Assembly (NCBI RefSeq): GCF_000429125.1
Contig: NZ_KE386849.1
Span: 282,647-346,646 of the forward strand
Direction of reading: 5' to 3'
Source: Aequorivita capsosiphonis DSM 23843
GTDB lineage: Bacteria > Bacteroidota > Bacteroidia > Flavobacteriales > Flavobacteriaceae
DNA: 64,000 nucleotides
The notes below the pieces were generated by a model, which was not told the DNA's origin, ran no database searches, and saw only the letters and a program-made list of their open reading frames with translations. Position numbers and translations under genes: made by a program. Positions 18,852 through 46,015 of the stretch are shown one piece after another; position 1 is the stretch's first letter, and each line of letters begins with the position of its first letter.

Positions 18852-19100
18852 AAAATTTTATGGTTAAGTTGAAGGGGGCATAAAATATACGAACAATTTA
18901 TTTATACGAAAAGATATCAATGCGTTTTAAGAATTTATACATCTGTCGTTCTTCTATAAGCCCTCCTTTCTGAGTTATTAACTTTGGAGAAAAATATTGC
19001 CACAGGACGGGAAAGTTATCTTATGGTAAAACTTCTATGAGAAATCCTATATTAAAATAATGAAGAGAATTTCCACAAAAGGAAGCCTGTAAAAAGATTT

Positions 19101-19862: not shown

Positions 19863-19923
19863 AACTTAAATCTTTTATTTCACCCAAAGATAGCCATTGT
19901 TGGGCAGAGCAGAAAGTAAAGGA

Positions 19924-19941
19924 CTCCGAGGCCCGTCGGAG
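19924..19941 (-). terminator. Hairpin CTCCGA-N6-TCGGAG after the AraC-type gene
   Basis: A six-base stem lies about 170 bp past the stop codon of the minus-strand AraC-type gene, next to a second short inverted repeat (GGAG/CTCC). No strong U-tract. The remainder of 19863-20109 shows nothing recognisable. Confidence 0.3.
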
Positions 19942-20109
19942 GTTGGAGAATCCTCCTGATATAGATATTTCATTCTTATTTGCTTGGCATCAAGAGATAC
20001 AAATGATGTAACGAAAATTTAAATAAAAATTGGAAAGGCTTAAAGTTGCAAACCTGTACAAGGGGACCGAAATTAAATAGTTTCCATTCAATGAAAAATT
20101 CAAAACCCC

Positions 20110-20922: not shown

Positions 20923-20992
20923 TGGCTTAAATTATAAAATAATTGTCTAAATATTGAAAATAAGCCTTGGTTTATTGTCGGAAATTTGCAGT

Positions 20993-25040: not shown

Positions 25041-26306
25041 TTAAATTAATGAGGTAGTAGCAGGATCCTTATCCAAAAACCCCACCCCTTCAAAAGCTTC
25101 CACCAACCGCTCCCCTATTCTTTGATCCAATTTTCCATCTTCATTCAAAACATTGATTTTTAAAATCCCACAAGAATGGTCGGGAAAGTGAAACGGACGG
25201 TGGAAGATATCGGATTGATGTGCGCCAGGATATAAGAGGATTGAGAATTTGGAATTCCAGTGATCGTTATAAACATACATCTGCCGAAGATCATTGGTGG
25301 AAGGTTTATTACCTTCAATTTGTTTCCATTTGGTGTCTATGATAACTTTGGTGCAATCAGCTTGTTTGATGACTATATCAGGACGGAGACTCATGTTGCC
25401 CCAAAAGTTTTTTGATTGCTGCCCTGTAACAGTGTACGTTGTATTTATGCAGGCTTTTTTCAATTGCACGAGTATATACTCTTCCCAAAGACTGTTCATA
25501 TCAAAGAGCAATGCCAACATTCTTTCGGAACCGGAAGAGATATTGGGGGCATAATTTAAAATAATCAATCTAGCAATCTCCAGAGCTTTTTCGTAAGGCT
25601 GGCTTTTGCGGTTGAGTTTTAATTTATCAAAAGTTGTTCCACTACATTTTATCGCTGATACTTCGGGGAAATCTAATTGAACCCGTTTGCATTTTGCATA
25701 GAGATAACTGCCTTTACTCAACTGCTCAATAACCATTAACGCCAGATTTAATATCTGATGGATTTCGTGATCCTTGTCATAAATTTGATGGGTGGTATAA
25801 AATCGTTCTTTATGGATCAGATTTTTGGAAATATGACCGGCAAACTCCAATTTACCTTTTAAAGCAGTTACGTTTTTGGTTTCTTTGTAATAGCGTTTAA
25901 TCAGGCCTTGCCGAATAAGGATTTCCACTTCGCGCATAAACCAATCAAAATAAATATCCAATAAGTGGATATTCTGTTTGTTAACATCTGCTTGCCCTAC
26001 TTGATTAACTTTTAGTTTTCGGGTAACGCGAAGCATTTCAATAAGTACGTTCCGCCAAACTGTAGTGTTCTCAATAGCTTTATCCGCTTTTGGTAAGATC
26101 TCTATAGTAAGAGTATCTATTTGAATGATTCCCACATATTGCGAAAATTTAATGCCTTTGTTAACAAGGATGAAATATTTGTTATCGTGCAGCATATTCA
26201 GTTTTGCCAAGGCTTCAAAATGTTTTTGGGTAAAGGCCACACCCTTATACTCTCTACCATAGTAAAGAGTCTGATGCTCAAACACCTGTATTGGCTTATT
26301 GCGCAT
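25041..26306 (-). CDS. mcrC: McrC, nuclease subunit of the McrBC modification-dependent restriction system
   Basis: 421 aa. The C-terminal PD-(D/E)XK nuclease core is visible at about residues 307-335: LRPDIVIKQ, then VIIDTKWKQI (Asp, Asp/Glu and Lys of the catalytic triad in RPD...DTKWK). The N-terminus is the McrC-specific beta domain that contacts the McrB ring. McrC cuts DNA containing modified cytosine when activated by McrB GTP hydrolysis. It overlaps mcrB by 11 bp and is the last gene of the eight-gene defence run. Confidence 0.93.
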   Translation of the reverse strand: MRNKPIQVFEHQTLYYGREYKGVAFTQKHFEALAKLNMLHDNKYFILVNKGIKFSQYVGIIQIDTLTIEILPKADKAIENTTVWRNVLIEMLRVTRKLKVNQVGQADVNKQNIHLLDIYFDWFMREVEILIRQGLIKRYYKETKNVTALKGKLEFAGHISKNLIHKERFYTTHQIYDKDHEIHQILNLALMVIEQLSKGSYLYAKCKRVQLDFPEVSAIKCSGTTFDKLKLNRKSQPYEKALEIARLIILNYAPNISSGSERMLALLFDMNSLWEEYILVQLKKACINTTYTVTGQQSKNFWGNMSLRPDIVIKQADCTKVIIDTKWKQIEGNKPSTNDLRQMYVYNDHWNSKFSILLYPGAHQSDIFHRPFHFPDHSCGILKINVLNEDGKLDQRIGERLVEAFEGVGFLDKDPATTSLI

Positions 26307-28278
26307 TTCTGTTTAAAAGTAGACTAACAGCTTCTTCAATGTCATCTATATCCTTGACTAATTCACAAAGCGTTACATTGTCAGGTTCGTTTATACCGTC
26401 AAAGCTTGGGAATTTAATAACGTGATTGGTTTTTACCGTAACAAAACCAGCACCAAGAATAAGGGCGATTTTTTCGTAATCGTGGTAAAAGTATTCTTGG
26501 AGTAATGGAATCACTTTATTCTTAAAAACCTCTTCCAATGCTAGCGTATCTCCACTTTCCACGTTCATAAAGTAAGAATGTCCAATAGTGTGATCTCTGT
26601 CCAATAAAAACTTGATACGCTCATTGATGGTAAGGAGTACTTCTTCGAGGTTAAATTCGTCAAATTCTATATCTGTAAGCAAAGAGGGCTCTGGCATTAT
26701 CTCCTTAAAACTAAACCTTCTTCTCAGCGCGCTGTCCAGTGCTTCAACTGAACGGTCGGCGGTATTCATGGTGGCTATTATATACAAATTTTTGGGTACA
26801 CCAAATTTCTGTTTGGAATAGGGAAGCATTACTTCCAAAGCTTCCTCTGCTCCAGTACGTTTGTCGGGTTCAATAAGAGTAATTAGTTCACCGAAAATTC
26901 CAGATACGTTTCCCCGATTGATTTCATCAATGATGAACACATAAGGTTTGTCATTATTTTTAATTTCAGAGAACTTAGGGAGATGATAATTTCTGTACAA
27001 ATGTTCCAAAATTCCCTTTACATACGAAGGATTGTAAAGATCCGTGAGAGGAGCTCCTTCATATAGCATACGAATATTTTCTATTGCGGCCGGATATTGT
27101 GGGTTTTCAACATTTGACTCGTGCGGTCGAATGCGAAAGGTTGTCTGCCCAGTATAATTGACATCAAATTTATTACCTCGGTCAGTTGTTAAGGTAATAG
27201 GGCCATTATCAAGTATATCATTTTTTAATCTCGTAACAATAGCATCAAAATCGCCAGATTTTATTGAGCCCGTGCGTGATTTATCGCAAATGGACCTAAA
27301 AATCCCTTTCTGCACCACATAAATAATATCTTTTTCATTTATAATCTCTGGTTTAATACCCTCAACGAAGTCTTCATAGGAAAAACTTTGATGGAAAGTA
27401 CAAAAGGCAATCTGTCCACCGCCTTCGCTCCAATTGTTTATTAATAGACGATCGTATTCCTCCTTTATTGACTTTCGATTCCCCTTATTCGCGTTATAAA
27501 AATCTGGGTTAATAATTTTTACAGCCAAGCTAACTGTTTCAAATGTTTTTCCGGTTCCAGGTGGTCCATACAAGATTTGATTTAAAGGTTTCCTATTTTT
27601 ATCGTTAGGTAATTCATTATTAGAGGCAATATTATGACTGATAATCTTAGGTTCATCGTCAGAAATATTAATATTATTATATTTTGAAAAACGTTTTCCT
27701 AAATTACTTTGCATTCTATTGAATTCAGACAAAGTAATTCTATGTGAAACAAATTCAGGATTTTTTCTTTTAATTTCCTGAATAGCAGAATCTACAATTG
27801 GCATTATTATTTCTAAGTCCTTATCTATATCCTCTAACATGGCATCAATAGAAGTATAGCTGTTTTGTCTTGGAGCTATTTTGAAATTAAGCATTTTATT
27901 GTGGTCTGGACTGTCATAAGAAAAGTTCAATTTTTTTTTAATTGCTGAATCTTTTATTAATGAAATAAGCTCAAGAGCCCATTTATTTTGATCGTCATGA
28001 GGTGATTTCGTTTGGTTAAACTCAAAATTATAGCCAAAATAGTTATCCTTGGAACCAAATATTATACTAATTGCATCTCCTGAAGATCCAGGAAAACTAA
28101 CAGGTATGGTCCAAAGTGTAGTAGCAAAATAATTTGATCTTTTTGTTCCAACAAAATAGTCACTCTCAGCACCCTTTGAGCCTTTCATTCTTACTGAAAA
28201 AGTAAAACTCGGATCATTTGTATGTTTTTCTTGTAGCCAAGAATATACTTGTTTTTCGTACTCTTTATAATCAATCAT
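26296..28278 (-). CDS. mcrB: McrB, GTP-dependent AAA+ subunit of McrBC
   Basis: 660 aa. The AAA+ domain has Walker A GPPGTGKTFE at about residues 236-245, Walker B VFIIDEINRGN at about 444-454, the McrB/GTP-type motif MNTADRS at about 505-511, and an arginine-finger region with ALDSALRRRF. The first 200 residues form a DUF3578-like N-terminal recognition domain (FSVRMKGSKGAESDYFVG, then SFPGSSGDAISIIFG), which decides what DNA modification is read. This differs from E. coli McrB and could read other cytosine bases. It begins 197 bp after the CoiA-like gene and overlaps mcrC by 11 bp. Confidence 0.95.
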   Translation of the reverse strand: MIDYKEYEKQVYSWLQEKHTNDPSFTFSVRMKGSKGAESDYFVGTKRSNYFATTLWTIPVSFPGSSGDAISIIFGSKDNYFGYNFEFNQTKSPHDDQNKWALELISLIKDSAIKKKLNFSYDSPDHNKMLNFKIAPRQNSYTSIDAMLEDIDKDLEIIMPIVDSAIQEIKRKNPEFVSHRITLSEFNRMQSNLGKRFSKYNNINISDDEPKIISHNIASNNELPNDKNRKPLNQILYGPPGTGKTFETVSLAVKIINPDFYNANKGNRKSIKEEYDRLLINNWSEGGGQIAFCTFHQSFSYEDFVEGIKPEIINEKDIIYVVQKGIFRSICDKSRTGSIKSGDFDAIVTRLKNDILDNGPITLTTDRGNKFDVNYTGQTTFRIRPHESNVENPQYPAAIENIRMLYEGAPLTDLYNPSYVKGILEHLYRNYHLPKFSEIKNNDKPYVFIIDEINRGNVSGIFGELITLIEPDKRTGAEEALEVMLPYSKQKFGVPKNLYIIATMNTADRSVEALDSALRRRFSFKEIMPEPSLLTDIEFDEFNLEEVLLTINERIKFLLDRDHTIGHSYFMNVESGDTLALEEVFKNKVIPLLQEYFYHDYEKIALILGAGFVTVKTNHVIKFPSFDGINEPDNVTLCELVKDIDDIEEAVSLLLNRNAQ

Positions 28279-28475
28279 GTTGCTATTTATTAAATCTTTT
28301 GATTTGCTTTATTCACACCTCTTAATTTCGAGCACATATTCTTATGGCTTCTTGTCGTTATCAATCATAGTTTCCATTCTATAATACTGTCTATATTTTA
28401 TCCACTTATTCTATTTAAATATTGGTAGATTCAATTTCTCTATCAAACTTTTCTAAAAACCATTCTAAAGATTTA

Positions 28476-30215
28476 TTACTCTTTCCAAGTTCCCTTTTTA
28501 AAAAACTCTCGTGCTCGTTTATAGAATTCTTCTTGGCGTTGAGCATCTTTGTAATCGTGTCCCACTCGCTGTGCTTCCAATACATACTTAATTCGTTTGG
28601 GAAATTGGCTGGGGGAACTTCTGAATTCTTCAAGAAATTGATCAAAAATTGCTCTTTCTGATCGCTGTTCCTCTTCAATAAGAACAGCTTCTTCTCTATC
28701 AAAACTTTGTTGTTCTTCTTTTTCAAGTTTTCCAAACGTTCTTGATAGGGTTTGCTCTTCGATTCGTAATCTTGCAATAATTCGTTCTTCCTCGCTATAA
28801 GCTTCTGATAATTTTTCTTTTCTATTTCTAAATTGAATTCCAATTCGTTCTTTAATCTCGTTTTTTCTAATTGTAAAGCTACCAAGTTCTTCTCTTTCAA
28901 GGTTTTTATGGATTGTAACGAGCTCGTTTTGTTCTTGTAATAATCTTGAGATAGATTCTTCTTTTGCTTGGATAAGCTGTCCAAATTCTTTTGTAAATTT
29001 TTCAAATTCAATTCGTAACTTTTCCCTATCTGATTCAAATCTATCTGTAACAGTTGCCTCAGTCCATCCATTTTCGAGCTCCTCTCTTTTATCGCTATCA
29101 ATTCCTGCTTGCTCTGTTTCAAGCTTTCCTTTTTTTGAATTATATCTTGCTTCCAAATCATTAAAGTATTCTCGAAATCTACTTTCATTATCAACAAGCT
29201 TTCCTCCCTGTCTTTCAAGGTTGATGTTTTGATCTGTAAATTGTTTTCGTACTTCTTTATCAATTCCTCCTTCCAATTCTCCCAATCTCTTTTGCTCTCC
29301 TCTTGTAGCTTTCTCAATTCTTGATATTTCAGATTCAAGGTGTTGTTCAGCTCCTCTGTACGATTTTGACTGTAGGAATTTTTTAATAGTTCGTAACGTG
29401 TTATTAAGTCTTGCCTTGCGGCAACTGATATCTTCATCAAAAATTCTTCTTTGGTCTTCATCAAATTCCAATATTCCTTCTGAAGTTCTAAAGGAAACTC
29501 TTTCGTAAGTGGTGTTTGCTTCGTTTTCATTGTATTCCCATTTTATGCGTTGTGTTGAATTAAAATTATCTTCAATGTCTTGTTCTGAAGATTTAGGAAC
29601 AATAATGCTGATGGTATCAATACCTAATCGTCGTAACTTTATCTTTTTCTCAGCACTTACTTTATGAGTTATTACTAATTCTATTAATAAAATTGGCTTT
29701 TCATTTACATCAAAAAAAACCACATCAGGTCTTATTAATAAGTATCTATTTTCTACATCTGCATTTTTGCCAAACTTTACTGCACCTTCATCATCTTCAT
29801 AAAAAGTAAGTTGGGATTTTACCTTATGTGCTTTTACGAATTTTGCTTTTTCTAAAAGCATGGGTGTTCCATCTTCTCCTTTTGGAGGATATTTATAAAC
29901 ACTTGGTACTTTTATGAGTTTTAGCCTTTGTAGAATATCTGTTGCTAAAAGTTCTCTATATTGTCTATTGCTAAAAGTGCAGGGTGTTTCATCTTTCGTG
30001 ATGTCAACGGGAACGTGTCTAAAGAAAGACCTATGATTGAGATTCTTTTTTTTCTTAACTGCCTCCATTTCCTTATCACATCCAATACAGAAATAACCTT
30101 TACGACCACTAATTGCATTATCGATATAAAGATGATTGCCTTTTACATCTTTAGCCCAATCATTATTGGATTCAACATCATATTTTTTTTCTTCTAAAGG
30201 CATAATTCCACTCAC
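28476..30215 (-). CDS. CoiA-like nuclease protein with zinc-binding N-terminus and long coiled coil
   Basis: 579 aa. Residues 43-79 hold a possible zinc site (Cys43, Cys46, His61, His67, Cys79). At about 155-180 a nuclease-like core reads RPDVVFFDVNEKPILLIELV, with Asp and Glu in PD-(D/E)XK order but Val where Lys is usual. The rest (about 240-560) is a very charged coiled coil rich in E, K and R. Zinc motif plus nuclease resembles competence CoiA-type proteins, so I infer a DNA-acting defence or repair protein. It follows the PD-(D/E)XK gene by 26 bp. Oddly, a second frame is also open over the coiled coil (see rejected list). The start could be the Met four residues in (30203). Confidence 0.7.
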   Translation of the reverse strand: MSGIMPLEEKKYDVESNNDWAKDVKGNHLYIDNAISGRKGYFCIGCDKEMEAVKKKKNLNHRSFFRHVPVDITKDETPCTFSNRQYRELLATDILQRLKLIKVPSVYKYPPKGEDGTPMLLEKAKFVKAHKVKSQLTFYEDDEGAVKFGKNADVENRYLLIRPDVVFFDVNEKPILLIELVITHKVSAEKKIKLRRLGIDTISIIVPKSSEQDIEDNFNSTQRIKWEYNENEANTTYERVSFRTSEGILEFDEDQRRIFDEDISCRKARLNNTLRTIKKFLQSKSYRGAEQHLESEISRIEKATRGEQKRLGELEGGIDKEVRKQFTDQNINLERQGGKLVDNESRFREYFNDLEARYNSKKGKLETEQAGIDSDKREELENGWTEATVTDRFESDREKLRIEFEKFTKEFGQLIQAKEESISRLLQEQNELVTIHKNLEREELGSFTIRKNEIKERIGIQFRNRKEKLSEAYSEEERIIARLRIEEQTLSRTFGKLEKEEQQSFDREEAVLIEEEQRSERAIFDQFLEEFRSSPSQFPKRIKYVLEAQRVGHDYKDAQRQEEFYKRAREFFKKGTWKE

Positions 30216-30241
30216 GATATGTATTTACATGATTTTAAATA

Positions 30242-31513
30242 TTAGATTTGATTTGGTTCGTCATTTAAAATATTTTCAATACCATTAGCTCTGTTACTTT
30301 CAATTTCCTCTACGACCGTCGTATATTCATTTATAAATTTAATAACCTGTAAAACTGTCTCTTCAAGTAAATCTTTAAATGTCTGGGAGTTTTCATCATT
30401 TAATTTTTGAAGTAAATCACCGCTATTTAGATGAAGTGAATTGCCCTTAGGGGTTCTAATTAACCTAATAACTGGCCAGTATTTACTTAAATATTTATCA
30501 GACTCCTCATTTGCAAAATCAATATTAATTTCTTGAGTTAATCTATCGAAAATACCAATAAAGATTTTACCATTTTCATTTCCTTTACCACTAAATGATT
30601 CAATACCAAAACGCATACTTAAATCTTTCGTTTTATTTAACTCGATCCAAATCTGAGAATAATGATAATCTGATGCATTTCCGCTTACTACCCTATAATT
30701 TCTATCAATCAATACATTTTGTAAGTTTCGTATTACAGCTTGTCTAAAAGACTCTCGAACATTATAAATAAGCTTATCAAAATTACTATGAACATATTGA
30801 GCAGCTTCATAATTATTTAAAATACTTGATGTCAATTCTTTCTCACGTGTTTTGTCCATAGTTTTAGTAAGTTTTTTTAATAGTAATATGTATTGTTTGA
30901 GTGATAAAGAAAGAATAGAGTCTTTTTTTAATAATTCTCTACTTTCAGTTAGCCAACTAATAATATCTTCTTTATAACTAATTTTTTGTATAGTTTCCAA
31001 TTTTAGGGTATGGTAACTATACTTAGTGGGTTCATTACCATAAAGATTCAAGTAGACCAATATTGTTTTTGTTTCGTTGTATTTGCTATATCTATAAAGT
31101 TGCTTTCTTTGGTCTTTTGCATAGATTTTATTCTCTAGTGCAATTGTTTTCCCATTATCAAATCTTATAAGGATATCAATAAATCCTCCTCTCTCGTAAT
31201 TCTCATCGATTTTACCTAAATGAAATTCCTGAGTTACAGTTGTATTATTTAAATCCTTCCCATCAAATTTATAACCGATAATCTTTAAGAATTTATCAAG
31301 AAAAAAATCTTTTTTATAATGATTCTGCCTCGGATCAAGAAGTGTTGCAATGATTGCAGAGTGTGTGTATGTTTCATTTGACTCCATTCCCATAATACTG
31401 AATAGATTGAAGTCTTCTCCTTTTTCCTTTGATATTTCTTTATGTCGATTCGTTATTGCTCCAACATCCTGTAAAAAGGGATCGAGATTTTCTTTAATCG
31501 TACTTTCGTTCAT
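30242..31513 (-). CDS. PD-(D/E)XK nuclease family protein (PDDEXK_4-like)
   Basis: 423 aa. The first 145 residues match the PDDEXK_4 pattern: ETYTHSAIIATLLDP (about 47-61), then GGFIDILIRFDNGKTIALENK (about 109-129) with Asp113, Glu127 and Lys129 as catalytic residues, and QLYRYSKY with a conserved Gln/Tyr. The remaining 280 residues have no motif I recognise and may bind DNA or a partner. It lies 31 bp after hsdR and 26 bp before the CoiA-like gene on the same strand. Such nucleases occur often beside restriction genes; the trigger and target are unknown. Confidence 0.85.
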   Translation of the reverse strand: MNESTIKENLDPFLQDVGAITNRHKEISKEKGEDFNLFSIMGMESNETYTHSAIIATLLDPRQNHYKKDFFLDKFLKIIGYKFDGKDLNNTTVTQEFHLGKIDENYERGGFIDILIRFDNGKTIALENKIYAKDQRKQLYRYSKYNETKTILVYLNLYGNEPTKYSYHTLKLETIQKISYKEDIISWLTESRELLKKDSILSLSLKQYILLLKKLTKTMDKTREKELTSSILNNYEAAQYVHSNFDKLIYNVRESFRQAVIRNLQNVLIDRNYRVVSGNASDYHYSQIWIELNKTKDLSMRFGIESFSGKGNENGKIFIGIFDRLTQEINIDFANEESDKYLSKYWPVIRLIRTPKGNSLHLNSGDLLQKLNDENSQTFKDLLEETVLQVIKFINEYTTVVEEIESNRANGIENILNDEPNQI

Positions 31514-31544
31514 CTATTTTTATTGTTAAGTATTTCTATAATTC

Positions 31545-34500
31545 CTAAGCACTCCACTCCCCAAATTGCCCCTCAGCCTGCAACATTATTTCCTGCATTA
31601 TCTCATTAAGCTCAGAGATAGATATCTTCCCGCGCAATTCCTTTTTTACTGCCAATCTAATTGCCGCTTTTGCATTTTCCTTTTTGGTCCAGTCTAGCTG
31701 CAGGTTTTTCTTTACGGCTTTTACTACTCCGTGAACGATATCCTGTATCGGCCCTTCTTCCTTGATTATATCTTTTTTAGCGGCTAGAATATCATAAAAA
31801 GCCAATTCCTCATCGGTCAGGCCTAATGATTGTTTGCGCTCGTCTTCCTGCTGAAGGTCCTTTGCGCGGGATATTAGTTCAGCAATAGTTGCGTAGGAGT
31901 CGAGGGCATTGGAATGGTAGCGATCTATCACCTTTTCCAGCTCTTCTCTTAGGGAAGTATATTTCTTTATGTTTTTATGAAGTCTAAGTTTTATCTCGTC
32001 CTTCAATATGTTTTTAATCAATTCTATTTTTAGTGCCAATCCGTCTTTTTCCTGTTTGGCTCCTAGGAGAAAAGTTTCATCTAAAATGGAAATATCAGCT
32101 CTTTCAATTCCTGCCATTGCGAAAACATCTACAATATCTTCACTGTCTATACTTTGGCTGATTAACTCCTTTACTTTTTCTTTTCGGTCGTTTCTGCTGG
32201 AAGTAACTGATTTCGCATTTCGCACCGCTTTGGAAACGTGCTGCATAAACAAAACATCTATGGCGAAGTCTTGTATGGCTGGTTGACTTTTTACAATACT
32301 CAGCAAACTAGTAAGCGATTTTTCCGCTTTCATAAAGTCTTCGGAATCCTCATCGCTTTTAATAATAACGTTAATGGCTCGTTTTACTAAAAGCAATTTA
32401 TCACCATCTCGCAAGGCCTTCCAATGACTATAATCTATATCCTGCGGAATAAATACCTTACACTTTTCAATCTGATTGAAGAACAATTCTAACGCTTGCT
32501 CCATATCGATTGTGGGTTTCCCCTTTCTTCCTTCTTGGGTGTATTTGCTGGTAGCAGTTTTTAGGTTATCGCCAATCCCGATATAATCCACTATAACTCC
32601 GTTTCGTTTATCGAAGAAAACTCTATTAGTACGCGTTATGGCCTGCATTAGCGTATGGCCTCTCATTATCTTATCTACATACATAGTATGCACGCAAGGG
32701 GCGTCAAAACCAGTAAGCCACATATCGCGTACAATTACAATCTGCAATGGATCATCTGGGGTTCTAAAGCGTTTCTTCATCCCTTCCGTAGCATCCTTGG
32801 TACGAATATGCTCATTCCACGAAAGCGGATCTTTACTTATGTTTCCGGTCATAATAACGGCAACCTCAGGACAGCCTTCCAAAGCAGTAAGCGCATTATA
32901 CATCTTGACGCAATTTCTACGGCTCATACATACCACCATTGCCTTTCCTTCCAACGTATCGGTTCGGGTGGTATAATGGCGTAAGATATCTGCGGCAATT
33001 TTATTTACACGGTCTTCGGAACCTGCTGCATCTTCAATCGCAGCCCAACGCAAGGAAGGGTCATCTTCTGCCGATTCAGCTATTTCGTCCACATCGCTAT
33101 CAATGGCTTCATTCCATAAATGGAGTTTTGCCAAACGCGGTTCATAAAAGATATTTACGGTGGCGTTATCATCAACAGCCTGTTTTATGTCGTAAACGTG
33201 AATTAGGTTTCCAAAAACCTCAACGGTGTCCGCATCTTTGCTATCTATGGGCGTACCCGTAAAACCGATAAAGGAAGCATTGGGTAAGGCTTTGCGCATA
33301 TTACTTGCAAACCCATCCAACAAACCATATTGGGTCCGGTGTGCCTCGTCTGCCATTACAATTATGTTCTCGCGTTCGCTAAGTGTGGGATGCTCTAACT
33401 CACCAAGTTTTTCGTCGGTGGATTGTTTTAAACGGAACTTTTCAATAGTAGTAAAGATTACGCCTCCAGCTCCCACCGAAAGCAATCTTCGAAGGTGATC
33501 GGTACTCTCGGCGTGCTGTACATCTCCTACTAGATCTTTTGCCAATACAAAATTTTCATAGAGCTGAATATCCAAATCGCTTCTGTCCACTTGTACGATT
33601 ATGGTAGGGTTTTTCAATTCTGGCAAACTTCGTAGAATTCCAGTGTACATTGCCATACTCATACTTTTACCACTTCCCTGTGTATGCCATATTACGCCAA
33701 TACGACCATCTCCAAAAGGACGAACGGATTTCTTGGCTGCTTCTACAGCAAAGGCAACTCCAAAGAATTGGTGATACTTGGCGCCTTTTTTTATTAAAGT
33801 GCCGTTGTGGTCTTCATGAAAAATAAAGTTCTTGATATAGTTTAGCAATCTATCTTTTGGGAAAAGCCCAAAGAGCAGGGTATGCATCTGAAAGTCGTCT
33901 TCCTGAACGGTATCAACCCCATTTATACTTTTCCAAGCTGCGTACCATTCCATACCCGAGCTATACATTCCGTGTTGCGCCTCGTTGCCATCGCTGATTA
34001 CGGTGATGGCGTTGTACTCGAACAAAACAGGAATATCTTTTATATAATGCCCTATCTGGTTATGAGCTTCTTTTAGGTTGGTAGTATCGTCATACCAGTT
34101 TTTAAGTTCGAAGACTACAAGCGGCAAGCCATTTATATAAATGATAATATCGGGTCTTCGTTTGTTTTTGCCCGTAATGCTAAACTGATTTACTGCCCAA
34201 AAGGCATTATTTTTAGGGTTTTCAAAATCTATAGGATAAATATGAACCGCTTTTTCCTCGCCATCCACATCTTCGTAAGCATATTCTTTGCCTTTGGTAA
34301 GCTTTAGGTGAAAGTCACGATTGCGATGGTCTAAATCTGCGCCTACATTATTGGTGAGTTCTGCAACAGCAAGCGCTTGAATCTCTTGGGGTATATTCGG
34401 GTATTGCTTTTCAATAAACGCCAATAAGGGTTCCTTAAGCACCACCTCAGTATTATTCTGTGGCAAGCCTGTACCCAGTTTATGGGTGTACCCCAAATCT

Positions 34501-34577
34501 GTAAGCCAATCTATGGCGGCTTGTTCTATTGTTGCTTCTTTGGTCATATTCGTTATTGCAAAACAATCATTTTTCAA
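31545..34577 (-). CDS. hsdR: Type I restriction enzyme R subunit
   Basis: 1010 aa. An N-terminal nuclease core at about residues 135-165 reads RPDIIIYINGLPLVVFELKN (Asp, Glu, Lys), then an SF2 helicase with Walker A HTQGSGKSMS at about 296-305, DEAH-box MADEAHRTQYG at about 407-417, TGTP (motif III) and later helicase motifs with LTGFDAPCVHTMYVDK and ITRTNR. All motifs appear intact, so the enzyme is probably active. It cuts unmodified DNA after translocation. Alternative start: the Met at residue 11 (34547). It begins 7 bp after hsdS and 31 bp before the PD-(D/E)XK gene. Confidence 0.96.
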   Translation of the reverse strand: MKNDCFAITNMTKEATIEQAAIDWLTDLGYTHKLGTGLPQNNTEVVLKEPLLAFIEKQYPNIPQEIQALAVAELTNNVGADLDHRNRDFHLKLTKGKEYAYEDVDGEEKAVHIYPIDFENPKNNAFWAVNQFSITGKNKRRPDIIIYINGLPLVVFELKNWYDDTTNLKEAHNQIGHYIKDIPVLFEYNAITVISDGNEAQHGMYSSGMEWYAAWKSINGVDTVQEDDFQMHTLLFGLFPKDRLLNYIKNFIFHEDHNGTLIKKGAKYHQFFGVAFAVEAAKKSVRPFGDGRIGVIWHTQGSGKSMSMAMYTGILRSLPELKNPTIIVQVDRSDLDIQLYENFVLAKDLVGDVQHAESTDHLRRLLSVGAGGVIFTTIEKFRLKQSTDEKLGELEHPTLSERENIIVMADEAHRTQYGLLDGFASNMRKALPNASFIGFTGTPIDSKDADTVEVFGNLIHVYDIKQAVDDNATVNIFYEPRLAKLHLWNEAIDSDVDEIAESAEDDPSLRWAAIEDAAGSEDRVNKIAADILRHYTTRTDTLEGKAMVVCMSRRNCVKMYNALTALEGCPEVAVIMTGNISKDPLSWNEHIRTKDATEGMKKRFRTPDDPLQIVIVRDMWLTGFDAPCVHTMYVDKIMRGHTLMQAITRTNRVFFDKRNGVIVDYIGIGDNLKTATSKYTQEGRKGKPTIDMEQALELFFNQIEKCKVFIPQDIDYSHWKALRDGDKLLLVKRAINVIIKSDEDSEDFMKAEKSLTSLLSIVKSQPAIQDFAIDVLFMQHVSKAVRNAKSVTSSRNDRKEKVKELISQSIDSEDIVDVFAMAGIERADISILDETFLLGAKQEKDGLALKIELIKNILKDEIKLRLHKNIKKYTSLREELEKVIDRYHSNALDSYATIAELISRAKDLQQEDERKQSLGLTDEELAFYDILAAKKDIIKEEGPIQDIVHGVVKAVKKNLQLDWTKKENAKAAIRLAVKKELRGKISISELNEIMQEIMLQAEGQFGEWSA

Positions 34578-34584
34578 ATTCCAT

Positions 34585-35679
34585 TTATGCGTTCACTGGC
34601 TCAAACTCTTTTAATCGTACTTCGCCACTTATCAATTTTGGCAATAGGGTGTTGCGGAGTTGGGTTAGGGTTTGATTCTCTTCAATGTTAGCTTTTATAC
34701 TACTGAAGTATCTATTTACCGTTTCATCAAATATTTTAATTTGATCTATATCGGGAACTAAAATCTTTATTCTATTTAATAATTCAGTTGTTAAACTTGG
34801 AATTGCAGAACCTACATCCATTCCTGCCAAGTCAGTTACTTTTAAAAAGTGAAATGTGTATTTACCGAAATATTTCTCTTTAATTATTGAATAGAACATT
34901 GTATCAACTGACCAAAATGGTTCAGTTAAATAAAATAAATTACTCAAAGTTCCCTTTCTTGGAATTAAAATTGACTCTTCGTTATATAAATATTGATCTA
35001 CATATCTCATTATACCTCCTGAACCGTAAACTGGATATTTTCCGTCGGCAAGCTTTTTATGAGCCTTTCCATATTTTATGTCTAAGATATGGTCTAATCG
35101 TTTCACCATCCATTCTTTTGGAATTTCTCCCAACTCACTTTCCACGAACTCCCCATCCTTAAACGGTCCAAAATCTACAAACCAATGTTTATAAAGTTCC
35201 ATTGCCATTTCTTCCAAGGTTTTATTAATAGCCAGGTTGTTTTCTATTTTATCGTCTATGTCGGAAAGGATTTGGGCTATTGCTTTTTGTTCGGGGAGAG
35301 ATGGGATTTGAACGTCCAAACTATGAACATCATTCCTATTTAAGGTTGGGACACTAGTACCGGAATTAAACAATTCAAAATTTAAAGTTTGTAAGAAATA
35401 ATAAATGAATTTCGCATTATTACCATGAAAATCTTTTACCCAAAGAGCAGTATTCAAAGGCCAATAATCTCCTTCCTCATAAAATACTTGCCCAAGAGTT
35501 CCTGATCTTCCAGTTGTAACACCAGGACCTTTAACCTTAAATTCATTATGCCAAGAACTAAATCCTGAAGCAGCGATCACGGGATAATCTCCATGTATTC
35601 TTTTAGGATTAGGCAAGTCAAATCCTCTTTGTAAAGTGGATACTTTTCCAAGTTTATATGTTTTCCAGTTTTGGGACAT
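34585..35679 (-). CDS. hsdS: Type I restriction enzyme S subunit
   Basis: 364 aa, with two target-recognition domains and two conserved helical regions. TRD1 begins WKTYKLGKVSTLQRG; the first coiled-coil linker is IPSLPEQKAIAQILSDIDDK followed by FVDFGPF. TRD2 runs from WMVKRLDHILDIKYGKA to a second helix ending LTQLRNTLLPKLISGEVRL. The two halves set the bipartite DNA target of both modification and cutting; the target cannot be read by eye. It starts 3 bp after the KAP NTPase gene, not directly behind hsdM as usual. Confidence 0.95.
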   Translation of the reverse strand: MSQNWKTYKLGKVSTLQRGFDLPNPKRIHGDYPVIAASGFSSWHNEFKVKGPGVTTGRSGTLGQVFYEEGDYWPLNTALWVKDFHGNNAKFIYYFLQTLNFELFNSGTSVPTLNRNDVHSLDVQIPSLPEQKAIAQILSDIDDKIENNLAINKTLEEMAMELYKHWFVDFGPFKDGEFVESELGEIPKEWMVKRLDHILDIKYGKAHKKLADGKYPVYGSGGIMRYVDQYLYNEESILIPRKGTLSNLFYLTEPFWSVDTMFYSIIKEKYFGKYTFHFLKVTDLAGMDVGSAIPSLTTELLNRIKILVPDIDQIKIFDETVNRYFSSIKANIEENQTLTQLRNTLLPKLISGEVRLKEFEPVNA

Positions 35680-35682
35680 TGT

Positions 35683-38601
35683 CTATAAATTATTAAATGT
35701 AAAACGTTTAATGAACGTATTATGTTTTTTAAAGATTTTTACTTTCTGATTTATAAGAACAAGATCGTTATCATCAATCGTTTTTAGTAAAAGATACCTT
35801 AAATCATCATGGTTTTCATCAGTAAAAGACTGCAATTCCTTTTCAATATTTTTAGGATTATTAAGCCATTCTTCAAAGGGTTTTACAAGTTTTCGAAACT
35901 TCCCTAAAGGCAAAGCAATTAAAAACATTACAGCTAACAACTCACCATCCTCTGCCTCATTTGAATATTTAAAGTCTTCGTGTGCTTTGATTATTCTATA
36001 TATGTTCACAAAACGTTTTAAAGCCCTTGGGTTGGTTCCTAAAACATCAGACATACTCTGTAAAAGTTCAATTTCCTTATCTGAAAATTTTAGAGATTCT
36101 ATTGTTTCCTTTTGAATAAACTCAGGTATATTAGATTCATCTGGCTCAATTTTGTCTAATACCCTGTTTTCTTTATTAAGATAACCAAAAGAATGTTCTA
36201 CTTCATTGTAAATTAGGTTGTCCTCAATTATTTCAGATTCCGGCTGTGACTCGGCTAAAGTTTTAAGCATATGTTTTACGCTTTTATTGGTAGCAGATTT
36301 TAGCTGAAAAGGGACTTGGAATATTTTTTCCAAATAACCAGACGGCTCTATATTTTCAAAATCATTAGAGTTCTCTTCATTATTAAATTGTAAGCTATAT
36401 TTCTTAGTTAATGCATTTTTAACCCAACGCGGATCTACGCCAACCACTACTACAAACAATGGATACGCCATGAGTAAATTAACTGCCTCAAGAACCTCAA
36501 CAACCCGATCATCTGAACAACGATCTAGATCGTCTATATATAAAATAATTCGCTCTAATGGGTTACTGAATTTCTTTTTAAATTCTTCAGATTCTTTTGA
36601 TTTAATTAATTCCTCTTGATGGCCGCTAAATAACTCACTCAATATTTCAAAATCTTTTCGAATTACGGAAACAATACCTAAATGCTTTTTATAATCATCA
36701 CTTACTGATCTTTTTTCAATAAAATTGAAAAGAGCTTCTGTTGTTAATGTATTTTCTAATCGATATTCTATGTCGAGTTTAGTTTGCTTGGCTTGAGAAA
36801 TTTGTTTATTAAGCGTTACTATTTCGGTTTTATAGTTGTCGATTTCAAACTTCAAAGCTTTTTCTTCTTGATTGACTTTAAAAATAACTTCTCTTTTCTG
36901 TAGCTCATAATCTTCCTTGATTTTCCAAAATGACGAAATTAGAGGCTGTAGATGTTTAAATGTTTGAATATTTCTAATAACAAAACCACCAATTATGGTA
37001 ATAATATACCAAGCTTTGGTAGTTATTGTAAAATCTGTATTTCCTAAAACATAAGTAACCATGAATACGAAACCTTTAACTGCTATAACAAATATTAAAA
37101 TTAGAAACAACCAAACTAAATTAGCTTTCCAACTTGCTCCTTCAAAGAAGGTTTTAATAAAAGTGTATTTAGATTTTACTTTTTTGTATAACTCTGTTGG
37201 GTTTTGCCAATATTCTTTTGGCACTATTTCACCAAATTTTTCAGTTGAACTGTTGAAAGAATTATTTGATGCTAAAGCATCTGCAACTTTCTCTGAAATA
37301 TTAAATGAAGCATCTAATTGATATAAAACCGATTTTATTGATTTGCCTTTTATCTCATTAATTTTCCCTTGTAGCGATTCCTCCGCTCTATCTTTTTGGG
37401 ACTCTAAAGTTTTTATTTTATTATCAATACTCTTTTTTTGATATTCTAAATCTGTAATTTCATCGTGTGAGATGTTAAGTTTTTTTGTGAGCTCTTTTTC
37501 AATATCTTTTTTGTCCTTGCTAGCCTTAGTGTCATTAGTAATGTACTCCTGTAAACCTTCAAAAATCCTAGTTATAATTCCTGCCCACAAATTAGAATCC
37601 ATATAAGACCAAGCATTAAAATGAACGTGAGCAATACCACTACAGTAAGCATTTTGGGTATTATCAATTTTAGAAAGGTCCTGTATTCGTTCCTTTAATT
37701 TTCGCATAAAAAAACTCTTCCCTGATCCCCACTTACCTAATAGAGCAATCGCTAAAGGTGGTCTGAAACTTTTTGCTGAAATTACTTTTGCAAAAGCATT
37801 TATATCTTTTGAGATATCAAGATAATCGTCACCTGAATCTGCATCACTTATTAAACCTGCGATTGTGGTTATACTTTTTACTTCTGCCTCTGAATGTGGT
37901 TCTTCCTTTTTTGATTTTTCTGAATAAATTTTCTTTTCTTCTGGATACCTACCTTTTATTACTTCAGAAGAAGAGTATTTTGAGGATTCATTATCATCTA
38001 TTTTGCTTTCGCTTGATTCAACATTTGTTGTAAATTCCTCATTTCTAAAATTAAAGCTTTCACCTGAAGAAGGTCTTAGTTCTTCACTTTTTTCTATATC
38101 GTTTTTGTATTGTAAGTTGTAGCTTTCAAATGTTTTAATAAACTCCATACCCCTATTATCATCAGGTATTGCAATAGTGAAATGTATATTTTTAAATTGT
38201 TTTAAAACACCGACTATAGTATCATAGCTATCAACAAATTCAAGCTTACCTACGCCTGTTCCCATTAATGGCACCCATACTTTTTTTGATTTTAAAAATG
38301 ATTTATTCTCCTCTAATGCTAATTTTAAATTTCTTTGAAGAGCAATTCCAGAGAATTCATCATTACCAACTGTTACAATAAAAAGCAATGGTTTGTTTTT
38401 ATTATTATTTAGAAGGTAATAACCTTTTGACACATCGATTTTTTCTGCTTCGTAAGGATGATAACCTAGTTCCTCTAAAACAAAAAGGTTTAATTCGCCT
38501 AAACTTCCTCTGGAATTAATTGAAGCCAAAGCAATATTATACTTAATAGGTGAAACACCAAGTTCTGTTTTTATGTGGCTGTATGTATCTCTTTGTGCCA
38601 T
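35683..38601 (-). CDS. KAP-family P-loop NTPase with macro-like N-terminal domain, inserted in the type I R-M operon
   Basis: 972 aa. Residues about 1-155 resemble a macro-type (ADP-ribose-binding) fold, with IALASINSRGSLGEL and WVPLMGTGVGKLEF in the right order. Residues 160-240 form an acidic, Ser-rich linker. The KAP NTPase has Walker A LLGKWGSGKSFF at about 284-295 and Walker B RIILYIDDLDRCSDD at about 682-696, with long coiled coils between. Two membrane helices at about 492-518 and 528-545 interrupt the NTPase, as is typical of KAP proteins. It sits between hsdM and hsdS with 3 bp on each side, so it must be coexpressed with the R-M system. I infer an anti-phage role at the membrane; the macro-like domain is a weaker call than the NTPase. 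Confidence 0.85.
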   Translation of the reverse strand: MAQRDTYSHIKTELGVSPIKYNIALASINSRGSLGELNLFVLEELGYHPYEAEKIDVSKGYYLLNNNKNKPLLFIVTVGNDEFSGIALQRNLKLALEENKSFLKSKKVWVPLMGTGVGKLEFVDSYDTIVGVLKQFKNIHFTIAIPDDNRGMEFIKTFESYNLQYKNDIEKSEELRPSSGESFNFRNEEFTTNVESSESKIDDNESSKYSSSEVIKGRYPEEKKIYSEKSKKEEPHSEAEVKSITTIAGLISDADSGDDYLDISKDINAFAKVISAKSFRPPLAIALLGKWGSGKSFFMRKLKERIQDLSKIDNTQNAYCSGIAHVHFNAWSYMDSNLWAGIITRIFEGLQEYITNDTKASKDKKDIEKELTKKLNISHDEITDLEYQKKSIDNKIKTLESQKDRAEESLQGKINEIKGKSIKSVLYQLDASFNISEKVADALASNNSFNSSTEKFGEIVPKEYWQNPTELYKKVKSKYTFIKTFFEGASWKANLVWLFLILIFVIAVKGFVFMVTYVLGNTDFTITTKAWYIITIIGGFVIRNIQTFKHLQPLISSFWKIKEDYELQKREVIFKVNQEEKALKFEIDNYKTEIVTLNKQISQAKQTKLDIEYRLENTLTTEALFNFIEKRSVSDDYKKHLGIVSVIRKDFEILSELFSGHQEELIKSKESEEFKKKFSNPLERIILYIDDLDRCSDDRVVEVLEAVNLLMAYPLFVVVVGVDPRWVKNALTKKYSLQFNNEENSNDFENIEPSGYLEKIFQVPFQLKSATNKSVKHMLKTLAESQPESEIIEDNLIYNEVEHSFGYLNKENRVLDKIEPDESNIPEFIQKETIESLKFSDKEIELLQSMSDVLGTNPRALKRFVNIYRIIKAHEDFKYSNEAEDGELLAVMFLIALPLGKFRKLVKPFEEWLNNPKNIEKELQSFTDENHDDLRYLLLKTIDDNDLVLINQKVKIFKKHNTFIKRFTFNNL

Positions 38602-38604
38602 AAA

Positions 38605-40215
38605 TTAGAACTTATTAAAATTCTCCAAAATCTTTTCTTTCAATTCACTTCCATTAATAAATTGCTCTTTCAACTGAGTTTTTAAACCCTCCATTTTTTC
38701 TTCAAAGGGTATTCCGTCGTCTTCCACTGCCTCGCTTCCAACATAGATTCCAGGGGTGAGTTTGTAATCTTGTTTTTGAACTTCAGCAAGGGTGGCGCTG
38801 TAGCAGAAGCCGTCAATGTTTTGGTATGCGGCAGATTGCTTCACTCCGCTCGCAATGACGTTGCGCCAATTGTGGTAAACGTCGGTTACTTTTTCAATAT
38901 CTTCATCGGTAAATACGCGGAGTTTTCGGCTTTCCATAGTTCCCATTTTACTGGTGTCTATAAAAAGAATCTCATTCGTTCGTTCACGGTGCTTGCCATC
39001 TTTGCCATCCCGGTTTTTGCTAAGTATAAAAATACAAGCAGGAATTCCAGTGGTTAAAAACAACTTGTCTGGTAGGCGTACAATACAGTCTACCATACTG
39101 TTGTTAACCATAAACTCACGCACGTTCTTTTCGCCTCGGTTATTACTGGTCATTGCTCCATTTGCCATAACGATAGAAGCCGTTCCCGTGTCGCTTAAAT
39201 GGCTCCAAAAGGTTTGCATCCACATATAATTGGCGTTGCCATCTGTGGTAAAATCTTCTTTGGGTCCGAATAATCGTGGATCATTATCTGGTAGGTCTTC
39301 AGGATGCCATTGGCTTACGTTAAACGGTGGGTTTACTATAATAAAATCGGCTTTTAAATCTGGGAATTTATCCTGTAATAATGAGTCACCAAGACGCACG
39401 TCAAATGATAAATCGCGCAGCGCTAAGTTCATCTTGCAAAGCCGAAGTGTACCATCATAGCGTTCCTGTCCGTAAATGGAAATGTTTCGCTTATCGCCTC
39501 CGTGAGCTTCCAAAAACTTTAAGCTCTGCACAAACATACCACCAGAACCACAAGCGGCATCGAATATTTTTCCTTCATAAGGTTCTATCATTTCTACCAT
39601 TAGCCGTACAATACTGCCTGGAGTAAAAAACTGCCCTGCACCAGAACCTTCGGCAATTGCAAACTTGCCAATATAATATTCATAGACCCTTCCCAAGATA
39701 TCACTTTCAGGATTTTCTTTTTGAGAAAGCTTTGGGTTTGCCAAGAGATTTATCAATCCCGCAACTTGTTTGGCCGTCAGTTGACTTTTTACAAATATAC
39801 GTGGCAAGATTCCCTTTAAGTCTGGACGAAAGTCAGCAAGGGTCTTGTCTAATACATCAAAAGCATCGTCAACCAACGCTTTTATATTATCCTGCTCTGC
39901 ATTGTCCTGCAAAAATTGCCAAGTTGCTTCTTTGGGGATGATATAGGTGTTTTTGGAAAGGTATTCGTCTGGATCTTCTAATACATAATTGCGCTCTTCC
40001 TTATCCAGCGTGTAGTAATCAGATTCGGGATCGTTAAGAAGTTTTAATAGTGTTTCCTTTCGTATCTCATAGCGCTCCGAGATATGTTTTAAAAATATTA
40101 AAGGAAGGACGTAATCTTTATATTGATTTTCAGCAACAGCGCCACGAAGTTCGTTTGCTGCTTTCCAAAGTTCCTGTTCAAAATTAATATCAGCTTTGGG
40201 GGTGATTTTTGTCAT
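38605..40215 (-). CDS. hsdM: Type I restriction enzyme M subunit (N6-adenine methyltransferase)
   Basis: 536 aa. The HsdM N-terminal helical domain (FEQELWKAANELRGAV, VLPLIFLKHISERYE) precedes the methyltransferase: GAGQFFTPGSIVRLMV, the SAM-binding DAACGSGGMF at about 221-230, and the catalytic NPPF at about 294-297 in IIVNPPFNVSQW. It methylates adenine in the target set by HsdS. It is the first gene of the eight-gene defence run. A TATATTTG box, matching the Bacteroidota -7 element TAnnTTTG, lies on the minus strand at 40251-40244, 29 bp before the start, with a TTTACGGGATTCCGCA-type inverted repeat further upstream. Confidence 0.97.
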   Translation of the reverse strand: MTKITPKADINFEQELWKAANELRGAVAENQYKDYVLPLIFLKHISERYEIRKETLLKLLNDPESDYYTLDKEERNYVLEDPDEYLSKNTYIIPKEATWQFLQDNAEQDNIKALVDDAFDVLDKTLADFRPDLKGILPRIFVKSQLTAKQVAGLINLLANPKLSQKENPESDILGRVYEYYIGKFAIAEGSGAGQFFTPGSIVRLMVEMIEPYEGKIFDAACGSGGMFVQSLKFLEAHGGDKRNISIYGQERYDGTLRLCKMNLALRDLSFDVRLGDSLLQDKFPDLKADFIIVNPPFNVSQWHPEDLPDNDPRLFGPKEDFTTDGNANYMWMQTFWSHLSDTGTASIVMANGAMTSNNRGEKNVREFMVNNSMVDCIVRLPDKLFLTTGIPACIFILSKNRDGKDGKHRERTNEILFIDTSKMGTMESRKLRVFTDEDIEKVTDVYHNWRNVIASGVKQSAAYQNIDGFCYSATLAEVQKQDYKLTPGIYVGSEAVEDDGIPFEEKMEGLKTQLKEQFINGSELKEKILENFNKF

Positions 40216-46011: not shown

Positions 46012-46015
46012 TGTA

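What the first reader, a model, noticed from the sequence alone, without database searches (positions are those of the whole stretch)
25041..40215. Eight-gene defence operon: type I R-M, KAP NTPase, two orphan nucleases and McrBC in one run
hsdM, KAP NTPase, hsdS, hsdR, PDDEXK_4-like nuclease, CoiA-like nuclease, mcrB and mcrC all lie on the minus strand with gaps of 3, 3, 7, 31, 26 and 197 bp and one overlap. A restriction system cutting unmodified DNA is fused in one transcript with one cutting modified DNA, plus three proteins of unknown trigger. This looks like a layered defence module, with the orphan nucleases as the possible new parts.
Basis: partly seen in the sequence, partly recalled or inferred. 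Interest (0 to 1): 0.75.

Follow-up and report, generated by a model that had tools for sequence, protein, structure and literature searches.

The report
Swappable cargo slot in restriction operon
A run of eight bacterial defence genes turns out to be an ordinary DNA-restriction operon with one exchangeable slot, here filled by a membrane-bound NTPase carrying a ligand-sensing domain, followed by other defence genes that were not seen together with it elsewhere.

Summary
They are not a conserved eight-gene system. What recurs is hsdM-KAP-hsdS-hsdR: in 9 of 80 fetched KAP loci KAP lies between hsdM and hsdS. An HsdM-first census (70% identity or more) found that slot filled in 7 of 7 operons: KAP in 5, an OLD-type nuclease in 1, RhuM-Fic in 1. 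In three operon pairs DNA similarity stops at the hsdM stop codon and resumes at the hsdS start codon, so single cargo genes are exchanged. HsdM and HsdR trees agree on two clades; the KAPs do not follow them (AU p = 5e-52). The window's KAP begins with a macro domain (AlphaFold pLDDT 90.5; Foldseek's best hit and 25 of 50 listed rows are titled macro domains) and has a membrane hairpin between Walker A and B. The tail genes (PDC-S26 nuclease, CoiA-like, McrBC) mostly occur elsewhere in other contexts. Likely working: type I restriction with an exchangeable, co-expressed backup effector, here a macro-sensing membrane NTPase. Embedded genes such as PrrC and TgvAB are known, so this is a new variant. 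Function is inferred, not tested.

The parts
38605..40215 (-). hsdM, type I DNA methyltransferase subunit (536 aa)
   Evidence: Pfam N6_Mtase E 7e-94 and HsdM_N E 1e-21; NCBIfam hsdM 182 bits, below its cut-off of 243
35683..38601 (-). KAP NTPase (972 aa), cargo gene in the slot between the hsdM stop and the hsdS start
   Evidence: Pfam KAP_NTPase E 2.8e-31; KAP between hsdM and hsdS in 9 of 80 KAP loci; cargo edges by blastn
38122..38601 (-). macro domain, residues 1-160 of the KAP protein
   Evidence: AlphaFold2 (pLDDT 90.5 for the domain alone); Foldseek against PDB; profile hit to 2dx6 E 0.011
37714..37737 (-). Walker A GKWGSGKS, residues 289-296
   Evidence: 6 of 8 residues invariant and 1 nearly invariant in 30 aligned KAPs
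37036..37140 (-). membrane hairpin, residues 488-522, between Walker A and Walker B
   Evidence: Kyte-Doolittle scan, maximum 2.81; comparable stretches in the listed relatives
36520..36549 (-). Walker B IILYIDDLDR, residues 685-694
   Evidence: 8 of 10 residues invariant and 1 nearly invariant in 30 aligned KAPs
34585..35679 (-). hsdS, type I specificity subunit (364 aa)
   Evidence: Pfam Methylase_S E 4e-38, two stretches
31545..34577 (-). hsdR, type I restriction subunit (1010 aa from TTG)
   Evidence: Pfam HSDR_N, SWI2_SNF2, T1RH-like_C; NCBIfam hsdR 561 bits, cut-off 285
30242..31513 (-). PDC-S26 candidate defence nuclease, PD-(D/E)XK family PDDEXK_4 (423 aa); variable tail
   Evidence: PADLOC PDC-S26 E 4e-140; Pfam PDDEXK_4 E 7e-29; other contexts
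28476..30215 (-). CoiA-like protein: Cys/His zinc-binding-like N-terminus, nuclease-like core (RPDV...IELV), long coiled coil (579 aa; features by eye); variable tail
   Evidence: alignment of 8 family members; CoiA_N in 2 of 8; 4 of 395 phylum genomes including this one, 5 plasmid records
26296..28278 (-). mcrB, AAA+ GTPase of a type IV restriction system (660 aa); variable tail
   Evidence: Pfam AAA_5 E 1.4e-13; NCBIfam McrB 121 bits, cut-off 637
25041..26306 (-). mcrC nuclease subunit (421 aa); variable tail
   Evidence: Pfam McrBC E 7e-60; NCBIfam McrC 84 bits, cut-off 338

Best explanation
The run is a type I restriction-modification operon of a particular Bacteroidota HsdM subfamily, followed by further defence genes stacked behind it. 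This subfamily keeps a cargo slot between the hsdM stop codon and the hsdS start codon. Defence genes are exchanged in and out of the slot while hsdM and hsdR stay; KAP NTPases are the usual cargo seen (shown by comparison). The cargo here is a macro domain, a linker, and a KAP P-loop NTPase with a membrane hairpin between its Walker motifs (shown by sequence and by predicted structure). It probably works as a second line (inferred): HsdMSR cuts unmodified DNA; if a phage gets past that, infection changes an ADP-ribose- or NAD-related ligand or modification that the macro domain senses, the NTPase assembles at the membrane, and the cell stops growing or dies before the phage is made. Because the same macro-KAP architecture also exists with no hsd match nearby, and other effectors use the same slot, the slot most likely supplies co-expression and mobility rather than a bespoke contact with HsdMSR. 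PDC-S26, the CoiA-like protein and McrBC (the last aimed at modified DNA) then act independently.
For: KAP-first: the scan matched 238 stretches, 178 encode relatives, and the best 80 were kept; 9 of these 80 have KAP between hsdM and hsdS, with hsdM-KAP spacings from -14 to 3 bp in 8 of the 9 (in L072 another gene lies between). HsdM-first: the operons with HsdM at 70% identity or more found number 7 with the window; slot cargo is KAP in 5 (window, L106, L107, L135, L022), OLD-type ATPase-TOPRIM in 1 (L105), RhuM-Fic in 1 (L136), none in 0. In the 24 loci with HsdM below 50% (L108-L131), hsdS follows hsdM directly in 20 and no KAP was seen in that slot in any. Edges: window against L105 is similar up to the hsdM end and again from the hsdS start; the same in L107 against L135 and L025 against L107. 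Trees: clade alpha against beta 100/100 in both HsdM and HsdR; the alpha KAPs as one clade are rejected, AU p = 5e-52, on a 9-row tree; the embedded label needs 7 changes on a 54-row KAP tree, 6 forced by starred branches, 9.4 expected for shuffled labels. GC3 of KAP is below that of hsdM in 10 of 10 operons measured. Macro domain. Macro-KAPs outside the slot: 28 of 42 non-embedded KAPs from L026-L075, of which L026 and L037 have hsd-like genes in the same stretch; L046 and L047 are in the window's genus.
Against: No function was tested; antiphage activity, ligand and membrane action are all inferred. Only the best 80 of 178 KAP relatives were examined, and the HsdM-first set has 7 members, one of them broken (L022). 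L072 has KAP between hsdM and hsdS (with other genes) although its HsdM is only 41% identical, so the slot is not strictly tied to the subfamily. The AU test does not reject window and L065 as KAP sisters (p = 0.325), so not every KAP in the slot must have been swapped. In the pair L027 and L136 the similarity resumes inside hsdS, not at its start. hsdS is as poor in GC3 as KAP in several operons, so low GC3 alone does not mark imported cargo. Five of 13 embedded KAPs, including the broken L022, lack the macro domain by profile, so macro sensing is not general to the slot. The ligand pocket was not compared residue by residue.
Confidence: 0.6

Rival explanations
1. PrrC-like guard: the KAP protein binds HsdMSR and is held silent by it; a phage anti-restriction protein releases it and the cell dies. 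(The odds of best explanation and rivals overlap; they are not exclusive.)
For: The gene sits inside the hsd operon, as prrC does (passage of PMC3874165 read: prrC is embedded in the operon and PrrC is sequestered within the type I complex). The embedded state changes several times on the KAP tree and KAPs do not follow the HsdM/HsdR clades.
Against: The same macro-KAP architecture occurs outside the slot in 28 of 42 non-embedded KAPs, and unrelated proteins (OLD-type, RhuM-Fic) use the slot, which argues against a specific contact surface.
Confidence: 0.2
2. Layered eight-gene system: all eight genes act and are inherited as one unit.
For: Same strand, short gaps, no minus-strand terminator-like site in the gaps between the genes; Crocinitomix (L070) has hsdM-KAP-TIR-hsdS-hsdR-PLD-mcrB-mcrC.
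Against: No relative with the whole set among the loci read; the tail genes are found apart; GC3 is uneven (hsdM, hsdR, mcrC 0.38-0.40; KAP, PDC-S26, CoiA-like 0.21-0.22); a 197-bp gap precedes mcrB.
Confidence: 0.08
3. Passive hot spot: the slot is just a place where homologous hsdM and hsdS flanks recombine, and KAP genes are there only because they are common mobile defence genes.
For: Conserved flanks on both sides (hsdM 70% identity or more; the first 32, 35 and 41 bp of hsdS 90-94% identical in three pairs); varied cargo.
Against: No empty slot in 7 of 7 HsdM-first operons, and KAP in 5 of 7, where a passive site should also be empty or hold many other gene types; small sample.
Confidence: 0.25
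4. Member of a known multi-gene system such as MADS, Qat or BREX.
For: Weak hits: MAD2, MAD5 and QatA models, BrxC_BrxD E 0.056 for KAP.
Against: MAD2, MAD5 and QatA are far below the curated cut-offs (59 of 720, 39 of 400, 73 of 600 bits); no other component of these systems appears in the rows shown for the eight proteins (the lists for HsdM and HsdS are capped at 25).
Confidence: 0.02

Closest known systems
EcoprrI with PrrC (type I R-M with embedded anticodon nuclease)
   Same: An abortive effector gene inside a type I operon; passage read in PMC3874165
   Different: Cargo here is a membrane KAP NTPase, in a slot after hsdM, exchanged for other cargo; no tie to HsdMSR shown
TgvAB, type IV restriction embedded in a type I operon
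   Same: Type I plus a modification-dependent system in one cluster; passages read in PMC11411939
   Different: There two GmrSD-like genes are embedded in the cluster, between hsdS and hsdR (and gene numbers); here McrBC lies behind the operon and the embedded gene is KAP
ThsA TM-macro effectors of Thoeris
   Same: A macro domain joined to membrane helices; the macro domain binds ADPR and IAD and clusters (abstract and introduction passages of PMC11204291)
   Different: No KAP NTPase named in the passages; works with a TIR protein, ThsB. None of the window's eight proteins has a TIR hit; a TIR gene does sit beside KAP in L070, whose KAP lacks the macro domain by profile
KAP NTPases PifA and QatA
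   Same: KAP P-loop with a membrane insert (KAP definition recalled); weak PADLOC hits to both
   Different: QatA cut-off not met (73 of 600 bits); no hit to other Qat proteins in the rows shown; macro N-terminus
PADLOC candidate PDC-S26
   Same: The PDDEXK_4 protein of the tail, E 4e-140
   Different: None found; it belongs to that candidate family. Elsewhere without hsd matches (L132, L134) or in another type I operon (L133)

Membership tests
Type I restriction-modification | HsdM, HsdS and HsdR encoded together with intact domains | tested here: met
   Pfam above cut-off for all three; HsdR passes its NCBIfam cut-off; HsdM does not reach NCBIfam hsdM (182 of 243 bits)
Type I restriction-modification | Sequence-specific methylation and cleavage far from the site | not testable with these tools
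   needs methylome and plating data
KAP NTPase family | KAP P-loop domain with Walker A and Walker B | tested here: met
   Pfam KAP_NTPase 109 bits, cut-off 20; motifs conserved in 30 members
KAP NTPase family | Transmembrane segment inserted between Walker A and Walker B (recalled definition) | tested here: met
   hydrophobic stretch 488-522 lies between residues 289-296 and 685-694
Macro domain | Macro fold | tested here: met
   AlphaFold pLDDT 90.5; Foldseek: best hit a macro domain, 25 of 50 listed rows titled macro domain or MacroH2A, 2dx6 TM 0.73 by target; full model likewise, where the first two rows are designed hydrolases; sequence profile only E 0.011 to 2dx6; no Pfam macro hit
Macro domain | Binds ADP-ribose or a related ligand | not testable with these tools
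   only the GTGxG-type loop is seen conserved
Qat system | QatA above its curated cut-off and QatBCD present | tested here: not met
   73 of 600 bits; no other Qat hit in the rows shown
MADS | MAD2 and MAD5 above cut-off and the other MAD genes present | tested here: not met
   59 of 720 and 39 of 400 bits; HsdM hits PADLOC mad2 (E 3e-49) but no other mad gene appears in the rows shown
PrrC-type guarded effector | Effector bound and silenced by HsdMSR, released by an anti-restriction protein | not tested
   needs biochemistry; only the position inside the operon is known
McrBC type IV restriction | McrB AAA+ and McrC nuclease encoded next to each other | tested here: met
   Pfam AAA_5 and McrBC; NCBIfam equivalog cut-offs not reached
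CoiA | CoiA domain by profile | tested here: inconclusive
   no hit for the window protein; CoiA_N in 2 of 8 members

The most novel reading that the evidence does not exclude
One subfamily of Bacteroidota type I restriction systems is a two-stage immune machine: it carries a dedicated effector bay between hsdM and hsdS, filled in every operon seen, and macro-KAP cargo turns restriction failure into membrane-level cell shutdown by reading an NAD- or ADP-ribose-derived signal of infection.
Probability: 0.25. Interest if true: 0.75.

Novelty: new variant of a known kind. Interest (0 to 1): 0.5.

Why it matters
Genes embedded in type I operons are known singly (PrrC, TgvAB), but whether the position itself is a functional bay is open. 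Here near-matched pairs (window and L105; Zobellia L027 and L136) have homologous hsdM and hsdR and different cargo, which makes that question directly testable by cargo swapping. The macro-KAP protein is a candidate effector whose ligand can be guessed and assayed. In the lists returned by the paper searches I saw no title or abstract start that describes a KAP gene in this slot or a macro-KAP protein; several of these lists were capped, most papers on them were not opened, the library is open-access only, and the 2004 paper that I recall as the founding KAP paper was not held.

Tried and rejected
Whole-operon DNA search of plasmids: no match. CoiA-like relatives in viral contigs: one weak hit over 61 residues of the coiled coil, ignored. 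HsdM, KAP and PDC-S26 in viral contigs: 4 HsdM relatives at 34-46%, 1 KAP relative at 34%, no PDC-S26; not followed. Sigma-70-type promoter scan: 56 sites against 57.5 expected; a Bacteroidetes-type motif (recalled) was not found on the minus strand of the region; neither is evidence on transcript structure. Left-flank gene in three genus mates: one distant hit at 25%, so no empty site was defined. The second domain found in most KAP relatives looks PUA/EVE-like to me by eye, but a profile search of solved structures gave no support, so I do not name it. The HsdM tree with the 41% outlier L072 was poorly resolved and was rebuilt without L072 and the truncated L022, with L135 and L136 added; L065 HsdR, cut by the contig end, was left out of the HsdR trees. 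The 54-row KAP tree used 54 of the 81 KAPs gathered: L107, the split or odd L052, L063 and L078, and all but four of the loci above L075 were left out; several long branches were flagged. The AU test of window plus L025 in HsdM and HsdR was chosen after seeing identities, so I lean on the test of clade alpha, which was defined from HsdM/HsdR and tested on KAP. G186 (HsdM 50%) falls in neither census group and was not fetched at that place. The fifth plasmid CoiA-like hit (Hymenobacter) was not opened. MADS, Qat and BREX membership was considered and rejected on cut-offs or missing parts.
Full report
Observation. The eight genes, their strand and their gaps are as described. Family profiles support seven labels. 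The CoiA-like label rests on relatives: 2 of 8 aligned members hit CoiA_N, the window protein none. The PDDEXK_4 protein is PADLOC candidate PDC-S26. The window lies in a genome of 4.04 Mb. A genus mate (G398) has a KAP locus on a contig of 18,748 bases, the same length as Aequorivita antarctica NZ_VORT01000022, which came up with the same KAP, so the genus is probably Aequorivita; this is inference.

What recurs. A scan of the genome-contig collection (one genome for each of 84,980 species) with a KAP alignment matched 238 stretches, of which 178 encode relatives; the best 80 were kept and their gene order read, a KAP ORF being labelled in 79. Twelve of the 80 loci carry an hsdM-like gene. 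In 9 the KAP gene lies between hsdM and hsdS: L025 Lutibacter, L027 Zobellia, L050 Flavobacterium, L056 Roseivirga, L059, L065 Leeuwenhoekiella, L070 Crocinitomix, L072 and L074. In L072 a further gene lies between hsdM and KAP; in L056, L070 and L072 further genes lie between KAP and hsdS. In L026 a KAP follows hsdR of another type I cluster and in L099 it follows an hsdS. If KAP genes fell at random among some 3,500 genes with at most two hsdM-hsdS junctions per genome (my assumption), about 0.05 of 80 would be expected in the slot.

HsdM-first count. Searching by HsdM instead of KAP: 395 order genomes, 395 phylum genomes, 354 family genomes (the draws overlap and the cut-offs differ) and 72,556 plasmid records. 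Operons with HsdM at 70% identity or more: the window, L105 (G750), L106 (G771; contig length and gene order equal those of Zobellia L027), L107 (G367), L135 (G939), L136 (G1022) and plasmid pSD15 of Microscilla (L022). Slot content: KAP in 5 of 7 (window, L106, L107, L135, L022; in L107 and L135 a distant KAP, Pfam E 3e-33 and 2e-32; in L022 hsdM and KAP are broken), OLD-type AAA-TOPRIM in L105, RhuM-Fic in L136 with a 154-aa gene that looks GIY-YIG-like by eye. No slot is empty. In the 24 fetched loci with HsdM under 50% (L108-L131) hsdS follows hsdM directly in 20; in L110 and L111 small genes lie between, and in L109 and L113 no hsdS was identified. No KAP was seen between hsdM and hsdS in the 24 (BLASTP with the window's KAP; the genes there are too small for a KAP). 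Extra genes lie between hsdS and hsdR in 17 of the 24, once a KAP (L121, Pfam E 4e-48).

Exchange. HsdM and HsdR trees agree on clade alpha (window, L065, L050, L070, L105; L065 HsdR is cut off and left out) against beta, support 100/100 in both. KAPs do not follow: alpha KAPs as one clade are rejected, AU p = 5e-52 (9 rows). The window's KAP is closest to that of beta operon L025 (71% over 762 residues), although HsdR of the two is 57% identical and HsdR of the window and L065 is 80% over 373 residues. The AU test does not reject window and L065 as KAP sisters (p = 0.325). On a 54-row KAP tree the embedded state needs 7 changes, 6 forced by starred branches; shuffled labels need 9.4 on average, and 8 of 500 shuffles are as low, so the label is clustered but has several origins or losses. 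Close operons with different cargo exist: window and L105 (KAP, OLD; sisters in the HsdR tree, 91/89, unresolved within four in the HsdM tree) and L027 and L136 (KAP, RhuM-Fic; sisters in both, 100/99). By blastn the similarity between window and L105 runs to the hsdM stop (2397 against 2396 in the oriented piece) and resumes at the hsdS start (5321 against 5322); L107 against L135 and L025 against L107 break at the same edges; in L027 against L136 it ends by the hsdM stop but resumes inside hsdS. GC3 of KAP is lower than that of hsdM in 10 of 10 operons measured, but hsdS is often low as well. I read this as cargo exchange between homologous operons.

The cargo protein. Residues 1-160 form a macro domain: AlphaFold2 from 26 sequences gives pLDDT 90.5. 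Foldseek's best hit is a viral macro domain, and 25 of the 50 rows listed (of 1,025 matches at E 10 or less) are titled macro domain or MacroH2A; others are proteins that I recall as macro proteins (TTHA0132, TARG1, Poa1p, MACROD2, YmdB), designed OSH55 hydrolases and SPX carrier fusions that I take to be macro-based from recall. With the full model the first two rows are OSH55 designs, then MacroH2A1.1. The sequence profile finds 2dx6 (TTHA0132) at E 0.011, over the PLxGTGxGG loop; no Pfam model calls the domain. The full model is weaker (mean pLDDT 69.8, residues 162-248 mostly below 50). A membrane hairpin lies at 488-522 between the Walker motifs. By profile, 8 of 13 embedded KAPs and 28 of 42 others from L026-L075 have the macro domain; a second domain is found in 11 of 13 and 37 of 42 but is missing in the window's copy (the profiles were built from some of these rows, so those hits are by construction).

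The tail. CoiA-like genes: 4 of 395 phylum genomes including this one and 5 plasmid records; seven of the eight other loci were compared with the nine reference proteins and none holds PDC-S26, McrBC or KAP. PDC-S26: 4 of 395 order genomes including this one; of the three others L133 has hsdM-hsdS-S26-334aa-hsdR, and L132 and L134 have it without hsd matches; 2 plasmid records have partial relatives, not opened. An mcrB-like gene appears in 2 of 80 KAP loci and mcrB with mcrC in 1, Crocinitomix L070, behind hsdR and a PLD protein. So association of such genes with type I operons repeats, but this set was not seen again.

How it works. Shown: domains, slot, exchange. Inferred: HsdMSR restricts unmodified DNA, McrBC modified DNA, PDC-S26 and the CoiA-like protein cut nucleic acid, and the KAP protein is a membrane effector tuned by its macro domain. 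ThsA TM-macro effectors give a precedent for macro domains that bind ADPR-type ligands and cluster membrane helices (PMC11204291, abstract and passages). PrrC gives a precedent for an abortive gene inside a type I operon (PMC3874165, passage), TgvAB for a modified-DNA system inside one (PMC11411939, passages). Macro-KAPs outside the slot and non-KAP cargo inside it argue that the slot gives expression and mobility rather than a fixed contact; the guard model stays open.

Novelty. The parts are known kinds. I saw no title or abstract start describing the exchangeable KAP slot or the macro-KAP architecture in the lists (several capped). I read passages of six papers; the other papers were seen as listings.

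Noticed in passing
L070 (Crocinitomix catalasitica), about 7300-21740: hsdM-KAP-TIR-hsdS-hsdR-PLD-mcrB-mcrC: another stacking of McrBC behind a KAP-bearing type I operon, with a TIR gene between KAP and hsdS.
   Followed up: partly
window 35683-38601, residues 162-248 of KAP: The window's KAP lacks a second domain (roughly 120-180 residues) found by profile in 48 of the 55 KAPs counted; a low-confidence linker stands in its place.
   Followed up: partly
L133 (G580:C10): PDC-S26 relative between hsdS and hsdR of another type I operon.
   Followed up: no
L134 (G698:C8), 9383-11419: Two PDC-S26-like ORFs in tandem, one short (195 aa).
   Followed up: no
window 43447-43983: HNH protein that ends inside the HNH_2 profile (matches 1-50 of 66), perhaps truncated.
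   Followed up: no
window 45103-47673: Three-gene minus-strand run: a lipoprotein-like protein (by eye), a membrane coiled-coil protein with a weak PADLOC LmuB hit (E 0.007), and a short protein with a TerB match below the Pfam cut-off.
   Followed up: no
window 52143-52865: Fic/DOC family protein.
   Followed up: no
L018 (Fibrella plasmid CP155472), 2921-13623: CoiA-like gene after an ATP-binding protein and a RloB family gene, near a Piwi-domain gene and a methyltransferase: looks like a plasmid defence cluster.
   Followed up: no
L022 (Microscilla plasmid pSD15): hsdM and KAP of the same module are broken, and a RelE/ParE-like and an ImmA/IrrE gene follow KAP, as a similar pair does in Roseivirga L056.
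   Followed up: partly
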